Below are positions 21,343 to 25,002 of a stretch of DNA of 64,000 bases, in pieces. The translations under genes and the position numbers were made by a program. Below the pieces are notes generated by a model. It searched no databases and was not told where the DNA came from. It saw only the letters and a list, made by a program, of their open reading frames with translations. The first letter of the stretch is position 1. Each line of letters opens with the position of its first letter. This DNA comes from Candidatus Saganbacteria bacterium (GTDB lineage Bacteria; Margulisbacteria; WOR-1; XYC2-FULL-46-14; WPAF01). The DNA lies in contig JACRPM010000003.1 of NCBI GenBank assembly GCA_016223205.1, positions 1-64,000 on the forward strand. The letters are read 5' to 3'.

Positions 21343-22155
21343 CTACAAAGAGGCGAGGATTACCGCTTCGGCGGGAGTCAGGAAGCGTTCGTATTGAGAG
21401 ATCTCGATCCCGCTTTCGGCAACGAACTTCCGCAACATGGCGCTTTCCGAGCTTTGAGCATATGCAACTCCGTGTCTTTGCCGTAAATGATCATCTACCC
21501 CCCCAACTATTTCACTGTGATATTTACGGGTAAAAACAAAGCCGGCGTTCTCGCTTATCCTCCCACGGGGGATCCCCCGAGCGATAAGTCGGGCATCCAT
21601 CACCAGGCTTCCTAAAAGACATCCCATCCCCCATAGCCCGATATCTGTGGAAGAAAACGGCTGCCCTTGTGGATCAAAAAGACCGAAGAACATAGCTCTC
21701 GAAGGGTCGCAACCAAGGCCCTTCCATTGCCTTATTTCTTCGGGTTTAAGGCCTTCCTCTGTTGTCCGAAAAGCGGACAGCGGCCGGCCATTCTCTTCTA
21801 AATACGGGGCAAAGACCATCATTTGGGAATAATGCGCCAGGTCGTCCACATATTTTTGTCCGGCCATCATAAGAGGAGAGATCACCTGTATCGGCACCTG
21901 TGAAGCCAGCACCATGACTGGACCGGGTTCATCTTGCATCGCCCAATGAGCGATCTGTTGCAGATCATCCAGGCGGACATTTTCGACTCTTAGGGTAGAT
22001 GCCGAGTTCGGCCCCATTTCGGCGTTCCGCATCATGGCAACTTTAAGCGGGACGCTTCTATTTTTTTCAGGGGTAAAAGAATAAGGGCCCAGCTGACCGC
22101 GCACGCGGCGGCCAAAAATACAAAAGGGTTCGGCGATAATGGATGCTCCCGGCAT
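21343..22155 (-). CDS. Unknown protein, paralogue A of kinase-linked pair
   Basis: I do not recognise the family. The 270-residue protein is soluble by eye, with no signal peptide or membrane helix. It is clearly homologous to the gene at 23113-23931. Shared blocks are GPYSFTP...VPLKVAMMR near residue 22 (paralogue GRYSLTA...IPLKYGMVR), the segment ENVRLDDLQQIAHWA, EPGPVMVLASQVP, SPLMMAGQKYVDDL, MFFGLFDPQG near 154, and LLGSLVMDARLIARGI near 185. It directly follows a Ser/Thr kinase gene (41 bp gap) and has its own promoter. Being a kinase substrate or effector is inference from context. The ATG at 22155 has GGAGG 6 nt upstream. Confidence 0.75.
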   Translation of the reverse strand: MPGASIIAEPFCIFGRRVRGQLGPYSFTPEKNRSVPLKVAMMRNAEMGPNSASTLRVENVRLDDLQQIAHWAMQDEPGPVMVLASQVPIQVISPLMMAGQKYVDDLAHYSQMMVFAPYLEENGRPLSAFRTTEEGLKPEEIRQWKGLGCDPSRAMFFGLFDPQGQPFSSTDIGLWGMGCLLGSLVMDARLIARGIPRGRISENAGFVFTRKYHSEIVGGVDDHLRQRHGVAYAQSSESAMLRKFVAESGIEISQYERFLTPAEAVILASL

Positions 22156-22170
22156 TAGGTCCTCCGGGAT

Positions 22171-22200
22171 TATATCCGGAACGGTAAGGGAAAATTTCAG
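22171..22200 (-). promoter_or_regulatory. Cassette promoter D (before unknown paralogue A)
   Basis: On the minus strand CTGAAA (22200-22195) is followed after exactly 18 bp by GATATA (22176-22171), and then by CGGAGG and the ATG at 22155. The CTGAAA overlaps the stop codon of the upstream kinase gene. Same architecture as the three other cassette promoters. Confidence 0.65.
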
Positions 22201-23054
22201 GCGACTTGGAGGTTGCCGAGCGCTTGATCGATATCCTTCAATATCTCCGCGTCAGAAAGATAAGTCCCCAATTTAGAAAGGCCGATCAGTTTTTTGATCA
22301 GGTCTTTCCCGGGCTTTGGTATCGGCAGTAAATTGATATTCCTATGCAGCTCTTGATATGTCTTATAAATGTCCTGGGCCGCGGGAAACCCCTTATCGAA
22401 ATCGATCGCTTTTTTACCGGACAGCATTTCGTAGAGGATCAAGCCTAGGGCCAACCAGTCGTCTTCGTTAACGGGGGCACAACGATAAATTATTCGCCTG
22501 GGCGATAAATAGCTCGGCGTTCCTATCAGCAGAGGGTTCTCCGGGTCGGCTACTTCAACCGGCAGCCGTTTTCCTTTCGGCCGCGCAAAAGCAAAATCCA
22601 GCAATATCAGGCCCTCTTTAGTTGCCCGGATGTTACCCGGCTTGAGATCGGCGTGCACTATCCCCTGTTCATGGATGTGCGCCACGGCCGAGGCCAATCC
22701 TTTAAAAAGCAAGAGCGCCGAACGATAGGGAAGGCCCCGCTTGCGGAAGATATAATCATGCAGGTCTTCTCCCTCCAAATATTGGAGCGCCACGCCGGGA
22801 CCCATTTCGGTTCGGGCGGTGCCTTCAAAACGAATGATATTTGGATGGCGGCTTAAGCCGGCCAAAACCCGGCTTTCATTTTCGATATAGAACCTACTGC
22901 GAGGTCTTCGACGAGGATCGACAATAGTGCTGATTTTTACGGCGATCGGGCGGCCAAAGCGGCCTTTTTCAAGATACACCTTGGCGGTCCCGCCTTCTCC
23001 CACCGGATGTTCAAAGGTAAAGTTTCGGACACGTCTTATGCCTATGGCACTCAT
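22197..23054 (-). CDS. Ser/Thr protein kinase, copy 1
   Basis: This Hanks-type kinase has 285 residues from the ATG at 23054. Seen are the glycine loop VGEGGTAKVY (18-27), the ATP lysine in IAVKIS (Lys40), the catalytic loop HADLKPGN (134-141), the metal aspartate as DFA instead of DFG (153-155), and GTPSYLSPRR in place of GTPxYMAPE. Essential Lys and both Asp are kept; Ala in place of Arg in HRD marks a non-RD kinase. No membrane segment or sensor domain follows. The start is favoured because GGAG lies 13 nt upstream and the promoter precedes it; the longer frame to 23135 runs through the promoter. Confidence 0.88.
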   Translation of the reverse strand: MSAIGIRRVRNFTFEHPVGEGGTAKVYLEKGRFGRPIAVKISTIVDPRRRPRSRFYIENESRVLAGLSRHPNIIRFEGTARTEMGPGVALQYLEGEDLHDYIFRKRGLPYRSALLLFKGLASAVAHIHEQGIVHADLKPGNIRATKEGLILLDFAFARPKGKRLPVEVADPENPLLIGTPSYLSPRRIIYRCAPVNEDDWLALGLILYEMLSGKKAIDFDKGFPAAQDIYKTYQELHRNINLLPIPKPGKDLIKKLIGLSKLGTYLSDAEILKDIDQALGNLQVA

Positions 23055-23077
23055 TGTTGCTCTTGGTCTCCTACATA

Positions 23078-23107
23078 TATATCGTGAGATTTGGGGCGGG
23101 ATTTCAG
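23078..23107 (-). promoter_or_regulatory. Cassette promoter C (before kinase 1)
   Basis: On the minus strand CTGAAA (23107-23102), an 18-bp spacer and GATATA (23083-23078) precede TATGTAGGAG and the kinase start. The whole 40-bp stretch is nearly the same as promoter A in front of kinase 2, including the spacer block CCCCAAATCT. Confidence 0.68.
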
Positions 23108-23112
23108 CTTTG

Positions 23113-23931
23113 TCAGGCGGCCGGCAGTTGTTCAATGATCTGGGCTTCGGGTTCGGGAAGCGGAGCTTGGGTTTGGATTTTCAGGAATCGTAGTTTATTA
23201 TCGAACATTATCTTATCGCTGCTTTGGCGGAAGCTATCCCCGTAATCTGCCTCTAATCGGTCCGCCAGGCTCCGGACAAAGCCCATTTGATATCTGGCGG
23301 CAAAAACCTTGCGGGCGTCTTCGCCCATAGCCTCCGCCGCTAATCCTCGCGCGATGAGCAGGGGATTGACCATCATCTCGCCCAGCAGCCGCGCCATAGC
23401 CCAGCTGAAATCCGTCGCGCCGATCATACCTCCCGCGGCGTCCCGCAAATTGAGGAACATGGTTTTGGCCAGCGGCAGTTGGGTGAAGTTTTCTCCGAAA
23501 AAGTCTTCCTCGAGACGGCCCAAACTGGCCTCGTCCCCCTGGACCACGAATCCGTCCTGCCATTTACCCTCCGAACTGATATGCGGTGAAAATATAGCCC
23601 ACTTGCAGAATCTATAAAGGTCGCTGATAAATTTCTCTCCGGCCATAATGAAGGGCCCCAATACTAACCTGGGCAATTGTGTGGTTAAGATCACGACCGG
23701 AGAGGGCTCGCCCGCATCGGCCCATTTTTGCAAGAGGTCCGAGCTTGGCAAACGAATATTTTCTGCTCCCCGGGGAGAAGCCAGGCCGGGGATGTCGGTC
23801 TTTCTGACCATTCCATATTTAAGAGGGATAAAGGATTTTCTTTGTGCGGTGAGGGAGTAACGACCCAGGCGGGAAGGGATCTTCCCCGCGGTGTAACAAT
23901 TTGCTACAACTTTTACGGCTGTTTCCGGCAT
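23113..23931 (-). CDS. Unknown protein, paralogue B of kinase-linked pair
   Basis: This 272-residue protein is homologous over its length to the unknown protein at 21343-22155 and has no family I can name. Shared features include the N-terminal GRYSLTAQRKSFIPLKYGM, ENIRLPSSDLLQKWA, EPSPVVILTTQLP, GPFIMAGEKFISDL, KTMFLNLRDAAGG and LLGEMMVNPLLIARGL. The C-terminus is Pro/Gln/Glu rich (QAPLPEPEAQIIEQLP). No transmembrane helix or catalytic motif is evident. It lies between the two kinase genes on the same strand, starts at an ATG with GGAGGGG 5 nt upstream, and has its own cassette promoter. Confidence 0.75.
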   Translation of the reverse strand: MPETAVKVVANCYTAGKIPSRLGRYSLTAQRKSFIPLKYGMVRKTDIPGLASPRGAENIRLPSSDLLQKWADAGEPSPVVILTTQLPRLVLGPFIMAGEKFISDLYRFCKWAIFSPHISSEGKWQDGFVVQGDEASLGRLEEDFFGENFTQLPLAKTMFLNLRDAAGGMIGATDFSWAMARLLGEMMVNPLLIARGLAAEAMGEDARKVFAARYQMGFVRSLADRLEADYGDSFRQSSDKIMFDNKLRFLKIQTQAPLPEPEAQIIEQLPAA

Positions 23932-23947
23932 AATTCCCCTCCGGGTC

Positions 23948-23977
23948 TATATCCGAAGAGGGAGAGATAAATTTCAG
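23948..23977 (-). promoter_or_regulatory. Cassette promoter B (before unknown paralogue B)
   Basis: On the minus strand CTGAAA (23977-23972), an 18-bp spacer and GATATA (23953-23948) precede CCCGGAGGGG and the ATG at 23931. It starts just after the stop codon of kinase 2. The first bases CCTGAAATTT and the CGGATATA core match promoter D. Confidence 0.65.
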
Positions 23978-23982
23978 GCGAT

Positions 23983-24951
23983 TTATGCTTCGGCGAGGGC
24001 CCGGGCCAGGTCATGGCCATCAGCGTAGCGGTTTTCGGGGCAAAGCGCGGTAGCCTTGTCGATGATCTCTTGATATCTGGGCGGCAGGTGGGAGGGCAAC
24101 GGCGGCAGGGTACGATATTCTTTCCCCAAATTAGCGACCTGGTACCTGCGGTTACCCTTGGCTCGCTGGCCGGTCAACAGTTCCCAGAGCATTACCCCCA
24201 TTGAAAACACATCCGCCGCGGGACCGAAGCTTTCCGCCAGCAATTGTTCCGGGGCCATATAGCTGGGAGTCCCTCTTACTATCCCGTCAACCGGTTCCGG
24301 AACGGGCCAGCGCTTGGCCAGACCATAATCGAGCAGGGCGATCTTATCCCGGCTCTTCATCACCACATTGGACGGCTTGATATCGGAGTGTACCAGCCCC
24401 GCACTATGCATCTCGCCCGCGGCCCGGGCGACCCGCTCTACGATCTTGGCGGCTCTTTTGGCCGGCAGAGGTCCGCGAGAGGCCAACAGCTCGAGCGTTG
24501 GTCCGGCAACATATTTTATCGCGAGATAATGATAAACTTCGTGAGTGGGGTCTTGCTGCGTCCCGCTTTCAAGCGATTCCACCAAGCCCAGGTATGCCCG
24601 GCCGGAGGCGATGGCATGGGCAAAGGCCTCGGCGGTCATATCTACGCTGCTGATCTTGAGCGCCACGGTGCCTAAGTTGGCACTGTGAGCCAGGTAAACC
24701 GCGCCGTACCCACCCTGCCCCAATTTCCTTTCGATCATAAAATCGCCGAAAGTATCTCCTCTCATCAGGAAGGGGAAGTGGGGTTCGTTCACTTTTTCCA
24801 ACAGATGGGTCTGCGCCCTTTCATCGACTCGAGGTATACTGTGGCTGGCCGGGTTCTGCGGGAGGAGGTTGCGCGTTTTGGATGTCAGCAGCGACCACGA
24901 CCTGGTGTGGCTGACGGGAGCTCGACGGCTTGCTATTTCTCCGATGCTCAT
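23983..24951 (-). CDS. Ser/Thr protein kinase, copy 2
   Basis: This Hanks-type kinase has 322 residues from the ATG at 24951; an in-frame ATG three codons earlier (24960) is possible, but the GGAG site is too close to it. A 65-residue Ser/Arg/Pro-rich N-terminal segment precedes the kinase domain. Motifs: LGQGGYGAVY (77-86), ALKIS with Lys99, HSDIKPSN (188-195), DYG at 208-210, GTPSYMAPEQ and DVFSMGVMLWELLTG. All catalytic residues are present; the HSD loop again lacks the Arg of HRD kinases. No membrane helix is seen, so it should be cytoplasmic. It is the promoter-proximal gene of the four-gene cassette. Confidence 0.9.
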   Translation of the reverse strand: MSIGEIASRRAPVSHTRSWSLLTSKTRNLLPQNPASHSIPRVDERAQTHLLEKVNEPHFPFLMRGDTFGDFMIERKLGQGGYGAVYLAHSANLGTVALKISSVDMTAEAFAHAIASGRAYLGLVESLESGTQQDPTHEVYHYLAIKYVAGPTLELLASRGPLPAKRAAKIVERVARAAGEMHSAGLVHSDIKPSNVVMKSRDKIALLDYGLAKRWPVPEPVDGIVRGTPSYMAPEQLLAESFGPAADVFSMGVMLWELLTGQRAKGNRRYQVANLGKEYRTLPPLPSHLPPRYQEIIDKATALCPENRYADGHDLARALAEA

Positions 24952-24972
24952 GGCATTCATTTCTCCTACATA

Positions 24973-25002
24973 TATATCGTCAGATTTGGGGTGGAATTTC
25001 AG
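24973..25002 (-). promoter_or_regulatory. Cassette promoter A (before kinase 2)
   Basis: On the minus strand CTGAAA (25002-24997), an 18-bp spacer containing CCCCAAATCT, and GATATA (24978-24973) are followed by TATGTAGGAG and the kinase start. It fills the gap after nadC. Nearly identical to promoter C. Confidence 0.68.

What the first reader, a model, noticed from the sequence alone, without database searches (positions are those of the whole stretch)
22171..25002. Four promoters of one unusual architecture, one per cassette gene
In front of each of the four genes the minus strand carries CTGAAA, exactly 18 bp, then GATATA, followed closely by a GGAG ribosome site: 25002-24973, 23977-23948, 23107-23078 and 22200-22171. 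Those before the kinases are almost the same over 40 bp; those before the unknowns share CCTGAAATTT and CGGATATA. Other promoters in the window are of the TTGACA/TATAAT type. Identical spacing in four non-coding gaps is unlikely by chance. The GAAA-N15-nnCGATAT pattern loosely recalls sigma-28 sites (TAAA-N15-GCCGATAA), so an alternative sigma factor or a shared regulator is possible.
Basis: partly seen in the sequence, partly recalled or inferred. Interest (0 to 1): 0.8.

Follow-up and report, generated by a model that had tools for sequence, protein, structure and literature searches.

The report
Sigma-28-type promoters in flagellum-less WOR-1 bacteria
The four matching sequences in front of the four genes look like real gene switches (promoters) of a type normally used for building flagella; they belong to a set of about 80-100 in this genome that recurs in every WOR-1 bacterium tested, none of which has a flagellar filament or motor, so an old flagellar control protein seems to have been given a large new job.

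Summary
All four CTGAAA-N18-GATATA sites are exactly where stated; the window has no others (0.01 expected). They are variants of a genome-wide promoter-like motif, (C/G)TGAAATTT-N14-(C)CGATAWAtA, with a YR start step 6 nt after the -10. Spacing and -10 match the sigma-28 consensus (TAAAGTTT-n11-GCCGATAA); the -35 is shifted. The genome (WOR-1/Saganbacteria) has 66 strict copies against 0 in the reversed control, and all 30 class relatives tested have 6-178. rpoD carries it in 22 of 22 class genomes. Homologues of the window's unknown genes, found by protein search, carry it too, three of five beside a kinase that also does.

The best candidate factor is a FliA-like sigma ('FliA2') inside a flgI-sigma-flgB-flgC-fliE operon in 26 of 26 class loci. 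It keeps sigma-28 region 2.4, but its region 4.2 helix has changed, in step with the altered -35. The class has flagellar-type export and rod/ring genes, but no flagellin, FliG torque domain or MotB (0/31). In this genome about 30% of the genes start at +1 or +4 (near-leaderless). Proteins of the set have basic N-termini; that they are exported is only a hypothesis. No transcription data exist here.

The parts
24973..25002 (-). Promoter of kinase gene 1: TGAAAT 25001-24996, CGATATA 24979-24973, predicted +1 at 24967
   Evidence: PWM score 29.5
23983..24960 (-). Ser/Thr kinase gene 1 (start at 24960 or 24951)
   Evidence: ORF; Pkinase 6.9e-33
23948..23977 (-). Promoter of unknown gene 1: TGAAAT 23976-23971, GGATATA 23954-23948, predicted +1 at 23942
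   Evidence: PWM score 19.9
23113..23931 (-). Unknown gene 1 (272 aa), paralogue of unknown gene 2
   Evidence: ORF; no Pfam match; 32% identity in alignment
23078..23107 (-). Promoter of kinase gene 2: TGAAAT 23106-23101, CGATATA 23084-23078, predicted +1 at 23072
   Evidence: PWM score 26.8
22197..23054 (-). Ser/Thr kinase gene 2 (285 aa)
   Evidence: ORF; Pkinase 5e-29
22171..22200 (-). Promoter of unknown gene 2: TGAAAT 22199-22194 (overlaps the stop codon of kinase 2), GGATATA 22177-22171, predicted +1 at 22165
   Evidence: PWM score 21.9
21343..22155 (-). Unknown gene 2 (270 aa)
   Evidence: ORF; no Pfam match; distant homologues in four other class genomes

Best explanation
The four sites are promoters read by a sigma-28-type RNA polymerase holoenzyme, four of about 80-100 such promoters in this WOR-1 genome. 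The most likely factor is a FliA-like sigma ('FliA2') encoded between flgI/flgJ and flgB in a flagellum-like but motorless and filamentless operon. It would read TGAAAT(T) at -35 and CGATAWA at -10, with exactly 16 bases between TGAAAT and CGATAW, and start about 6 nt after the -10. Each cassette gene would thus be switched on with a large set that includes rpoD, rpoN, other sigma-like genes, Ser/Thr kinases, FHA proteins and many unknown proteins. Shown by computation: the motif, its spacing, its implied start point and its conservation at orthologous genes. Inferred: that FliA2 is the factor. Hypothetical: the biological purpose.
For: Fixed spacing genome-wide: 66 of 80 hits at N16 when 11-21 is allowed, 2 control hits. 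Promoter logo with A/T-rich upstream side and YR at a fixed place, repeated in G010. ATG at offset 5 or 8 opens a frame in 25 of 25 cases. All 31 class genomes have 6-178 strict copies, controls 0-3. Motif before rpoD in 20 of 20 further class genomes. Homologues of the unknown genes found by protein search have it, and so do neighbouring kinases. FliA-like sigma in every class genome, in a flgI-sigma-flgB-flgC-fliE operon in 26 of 26 loci. Same spacing and -10 as TAAAGTTT-n11-GCCGATAA. Region 2.4 conserved and region 4.2 changed relative to true FliA, while flagellin genes of flagellated relatives have TAAAG and CGATAA.
Against: No transcription or binding data. The FliA2 match is below the curated FliA_WhiG cut-off (141 against 189.6 bits). 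A second, shorter FliA-like sigma is equally widespread. The regulon mixes housekeeping genes (rpoD, rimO) with unknowns, which is unusual for a sigma-28 regulon. The flagellar-type operon itself has no strong copy of the motif beside it in G000.
Confidence: 0.8

Rival explanations
1. The promoters are real and of sigma-28 type, but the factor that reads them is the shorter FliA-like sigma (193 aa, regions 2 and 4 only) encoded in the neighbourhood of flhA, or the two factors share them.
For: It is also present class-wide and phylum-wide and close to flhA, with FliA-like region 4.2.
Against: It lacks region 3 and the FxTYA part of region 2; its region 4.2 helix (SESQVSR) is much the same inside and outside the class, whereas the motif is abundant only inside.
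Confidence: 0.12
2. The two blocks are the operator of a DNA-binding regulator and not a promoter; transcription is by RpoD from unseen elements.
For: Shared extra sequence in the spacer of the kinase promoters (CCCCAAATCT) suggests that at least a subset has a further bound factor.
Against: Not palindromic; fixed spacing equal to sigma-28; YR and start codons at a fixed distance downstream; 25 near-leaderless starts at the expected +1/+4. RpoD has ordinary regions, so it should read TTGACA/TATAAT (established knowledge).
Confidence: 0.06
3. Local duplication: one promoter was copied with the genes and the likeness has no wider meaning.
For: The kinase promoters are near-identical over 40 bp and the genes are paralogous in pairs.
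Against: The same motif precedes dozens of unrelated genes and orthologous genes in other families, where surrounding DNA has diverged.
Confidence: 0.02

Closest known systems
Flagellar sigma-28 (FliA) promoters, consensus TAAAGTTT-n11-GCCGATAA (PMC2859248)
   Same: Spacing, CGATA(A/T) -10, A/T core of the -35, FliA-like sigma encoded among flagellar-type genes
   Different: -35 is TGAAATTT; no flagellin, FliG torque domain or MotB in the class; large set with rpoD, rpoN and kinases; factor is a separate lineage from true FliA
WhiG in Streptomyces and Rubrobacter (sporulation, type IV pili; PMC8325347)
   Same: Sigma-28-family factor used for non-flagellar genes
   Different: WhiG uses the canonical TAAA / GCCGATAA; 12 mapped promoters in Rubrobacter; its gene is not described there as lying in a flagellar-type operon; anti-sigma RsiG was not looked for here
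Sigma-28 of Chlamydia trachomatis (PMC10597470)
   Same: Sigma-28 kept in a bacterium with flagellar-descended secretion genes and no flagellum
   Different: Regulon of two genes (hctB, tsp) there, dozens here
Flagellum-derived non-flagellar secretion systems of Myxococcales (PMC3459982)
   Same: Export apparatus related to the flagellum, without motility parts, conserved over long times
   Different: The WOR-1 cluster keeps flagellar rod and P/L-ring genes (flgB, flgC, flgG, flgH, flgI, fliE) and an embedded sigma-28 paralogue; whether it belongs to that lineage was not tested

Membership tests
Sigma-28-type promoters | -10 element CGATAA/CGATAT | tested here: met
   CGATAW in the consensus; the two unknown genes of the window have GGATAT instead
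Sigma-28-type promoters | Spacing between -35 and -10 as in TAAAGTTT-n11-GCCGATAA | tested here: met
   66 of 80 hits at the single matching spacing; consensus from PMC2859248
Sigma-28-type promoters | -35 element TAAA | tested here: not met
   GAAAT(T) in its place; hence called a variant, not a canonical member
Sigma-28-type promoters | Transcription depends on the sigma-28 factor | not testable with these tools
   needs in vitro or in vivo transcription
FliA/WhiG sigma factors (TIGR02479) for FliA2 | Full-length similarity over regions 2-4, best among sigma families | tested here: met
   best NCBIfam match, residues 13-234, 4.5e-41; best solved relatives are sigma-28 structures 6pfj and 6pmi
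FliA/WhiG sigma factors (TIGR02479) for FliA2 | Score above the curated cut-off | tested here: not met
   141 against 189.6 bits; true FliA of flagellated relatives pass
Flagellum | Flagellin, motor stator and torque domain | tested here: not met
   flagellin, FliG_C and MotB_plug 0 of 31 class genomes, present in flagellated relatives and controls
Flagellar-type export apparatus | FlhA, FliM/N, rod and ring genes | tested here: met
Non-flagellar type III secretion (injectisome) | Secretin SctC and needle | not tested
   no search made

The most novel reading that the evidence does not exclude
FliA2 is the dedicated late-gene sigma of a motorless, filamentless flagellum-like export machine, and much of its regulon (including the kinases and unknown proteins of the window) consists of substrates exported through that machine by a basic N-terminal signal. 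The phylum would then carry an undescribed flagellum-derived secretion system with its own promoter code, also tied to control of rpoD.
Probability: 0.25. Interest if true: 0.92.

Novelty: new variant of a known kind. Interest (0 to 1): 0.76.

Why it matters
Sigma-28 is the standard example of a sigma factor tied to one structure, the flagellum. Here a whole candidate class with no filament or motor keeps a FliA paralogue inside a flagellum-like operon and has a diverged sigma-28-type promoter in front of dozens of genes, including the housekeeping sigma gene rpoD. It offers a readable regulon for uncultured WOR-1 bacteria, a parallel change of a sigma recognition helix and its -35 element that can be tested in vitro, and a direct way to ask what a stripped-down flagellar export machine exports. 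No mention of it was found in the open papers searched.

Tried and rejected
Chance: rejected. Known RNA element: no Rfam match near the cassette. Loss of a true flagellum followed by reuse of its FliA was my first reading; it was dropped when the flagellated relative G034 proved to have both a true FliA and a second flg-FliA2-flg cluster. Leaderless starts as a general feature of these promoters: rejected, as G010 mostly uses ordinary leaders with Shine-Dalgarno sites. Structure prediction of the unknown pair gave a poor model (pLDDT 42), so no fold search was made. Pfam gave no domain for either unknown protein. My own gene calls were rough (several genes missed or started late), so distances were re-derived from ORFs next to the sites.

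Full report
OBSERVATION. The exact pattern CTGAAA-N18-GATATA occurs four times in the window, at the stated coordinates and strand, with 0.01 expected and none of 100 shuffles reaching four. Each copy lies in a short gap in front of one gene of a tandem set: kinase, unknown, kinase, unknown. The kinases are Hanks-type by Pfam; the two unknown proteins have no Pfam match and are paralogues (30-32% identity).

GENOME-WIDE. The window lies in a 1.57-Mb assembly. The exact pattern occurs 13 times in it against 0 for the reversed control. Letting the spacing vary, TGAAAT-N(11-21)-CGATAW gives 80 hits with 2 control hits, and 66 of the 80 have exactly 16 bases. In about 437 kb of sequence (stretches mostly chosen around hits, plus the window) a position matrix finds 82 sites above 18 bits at that spacing and 0-2 when the two halves are shifted by 1 to 4 bases. 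That matrix was trained on exact-spacing sites in the same stretches, so one search is the fairer count. 87 of 92 scored sites lie outside called genes. The consensus is (C/G)TGAAATTT-N14-(C)CGATAWAtA. Upstream positions are A/T-rich, and a pyrimidine-purine step stands at one fixed place, 5/6 nt after the -10. In G010, from another family of the class, the same logo appears with the same YR step.

START POINTS. Counting every ATG downstream of 83 sites without choosing, offsets 5 and 8 from the -10 hold 12 and 13, and all 25 open a reading frame of at least 80 codons. The background is about 1 per offset, and the nearly as frequent ATGs at offset 1 almost never open one (1 of 11). Offset 5 is the predicted +1. 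About 30% of these genes in this genome therefore look leaderless or have a 3-nt leader; many of the rest, including the four of the window, have a Shine-Dalgarno sequence and a start 12-25 nt away. G010 mostly has ordinary leaders, so leaderlessness belongs to this lineage and not to the promoter type.

CLASS-WIDE CONSERVATION. All 31 genomes of the class, this one included, have 6 to 178 strict copies, with controls of 0-3; the seven phylum members outside the class have 2-20, with controls of 0-3. Named relatives of the sigma factor show the organism to be WOR-1/Saganbacteria (Margulisiibacteriota). Two tests did not start from the motif. First, upstream of rpoD in 20 further class genomes the motif ends 16-38 nt before the likely start codon in all 20, 19 of them at exact spacing; with G000 and G010 that is 22 of 22. 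Second, a protein search with the window's unknown family found five homologous places in four class genomes. All five have the motif upstream (PWM score 16.6-27.1), and in three a neighbouring kinase-like gene has it too. So the window's arrangement of kinase, unknown and one promoter each is itself conserved.

WHICH SIGMA. The genome has a housekeeping RpoD, an ECF factor, a 235-aa FliA-like factor ('FliA2'), a 193-aa FliA-like factor without region 3, and two divergent RpoD-like proteins. FliA2 is best matched by FliA_WhiG, at 141 bits against a cut-off of 189.6. In all 26 class loci inspected it lies in a flgI-sigma-flgB-flgC-fliE operon. Its region 2.4 is of sigma-28 type (FETYAxYRIRGE), fitting the conserved CGATA. 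Its region 4.2 helix is S(R/K)(P/S)KVxR where true FliA has SESR(V/I)SQ, fitting the changed -35. The spacing equals that of TAAAGTTT-n11-GCCGATAA (PMC2859248) when GAAATTT is laid on TAAAGTTT. Near the flagellin genes of two flagellated relatives, TAAAG and CGATAA are found at the canonical spacing (L146 and L147). A tree puts FliA2 with a second FliA-like lineage present across the phylum, apart from true FliA. In flagellated G034 that factor sits in a second flgG-flgA-flgH-flgI-sigma-flgB-flgC-fliE cluster, followed by fliF- and fliG-like genes. The short sigma is the main rival: it is as widespread, but its region 4.2 does not differ much between class and outgroup while the motif's abundance does. 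The assignment to FliA2 is inference.

THE APPARATUS. Class genomes have FlhA (30 of 31, three as fragments) and FliM/N-type proteins (27 of 31). None of 31 has flagellin, a FliG torque domain or MotB, while flagellated relatives in the same searches do. In G000 fliF, a 158-aa fliG remnant, fliH, fliI and fliJ follow the rod genes, and a second locus holds fliM/N to flhA (gene names are my reading of the translations except where NCBIfam is cited). It looks like a flagellum-derived export machine without motor or filament.

THE REGULON. Genes behind the motif in G000 include rpoD, rpoN, two divergent sigma-like genes, two LacI-type regulators and rimO (recognised by eye), and, by Pfam, four Ser/Thr kinases, an ABC1-like kinase domain, two FHA proteins, a phosphatase domain, radical SAM proteins and a HEAT-repeat protein; more than half of the 50 scanned have no significant match. 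Several G010 proteins behind the motif are homologues of G000 ones: rpoD 76%, a 225-aa protein 51%, a 94-aa protein 38%, and kinases. The first 30 residues of these proteins are basic and acid-poor: mean net charge +2.4 in G000 and +4.5 in G010 for starts with a Shine-Dalgarno site, +2.8 for leaderless ones, +0.6 in controls, while their bodies are not basic (p from 7e-4 to 3e-8). The controls are better-conserved genes, so gene age is a possible confounder. In G034, 7 of 12 genes behind the motif begin with an M-x-KK-(I/V)-I-like stretch against 0 of 11 controls (small numbers, list made by eye). A shared export signal is one reading; DNA or membrane binding is another.

VERDICT. A diverged sigma-28-type promoter, part of a class-wide set: close to certain as a conserved promoter-like motif, likely (0.8) as FliA2 promoters, speculative (0.25) as a secretion regulon. 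Sigma-28 used without flagella is known in Streptomyces and Rubrobacter (PMC8325347) and Chlamydia (PMC10597470). The shifted -35, the position in a motorless flagellum-like operon, the size of the set and the conserved site before rpoD are what is new as far as the searches show. A genome study of Saganbacteria metabolism does not mention flagella, secretion or sigma factors (PMC6349859).

Noticed in passing
G000 C4:67310 (L075) and L261-L280: The housekeeping sigma gene rpoD has the sigma-28-type motif 16-38 nt before its start in all 22 class genomes looked at; control of the primary sigma gene by such a promoter is unusual.
   Followed up: yes
G000 C5:118768-120010 (L081) and C4:153687 (L077): Two divergent RpoD-like sigma proteins (402 and about 259 aa) stand behind the motif; the first has its ATG at the predicted +1.
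   Followed up: partly
G000 C3:64291 (L098): A gene that reads as rpoN (sigma-54) has a weaker copy of the motif (CGAAAA -10) 19 nt before its start.
   Followed up: no
window 24973-25002 and 23078-23107; G000 C2:55065 and C6:139845: Four sites share an extra spacer sequence, CC(A/G)CCCCAAATCT(G/C)ACGATATATA, suggesting a subset with a further bound factor or a recent common origin.
   Followed up: partly
G000 C1:12386-12967 (L012) and L281-L287: A short FliA-like sigma without region 3 lies near flhA in most of the genomes compared, inside and outside the class; its function is unclear.
   Followed up: partly
G034 L301-L311: Proteins behind the motif in this flagellated relative share an N-terminal M-x-KK-(I/V)-I-like stretch without being signal peptides.
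   Followed up: partly
G000 C14:28328 and C14:28576 (L089): Two adjacent small zinc-ribbon genes (66 and 68 aa, related to the Mu-like Com family) each have their own copy of the motif, like the cassette in the window.
   Followed up: no
G000 C3:39684-43100 (L097): A second pair of paralogous Ser/Thr kinase genes, each with its own copy of the motif, plus small genes with the motif between and after them.
   Followed up: partly
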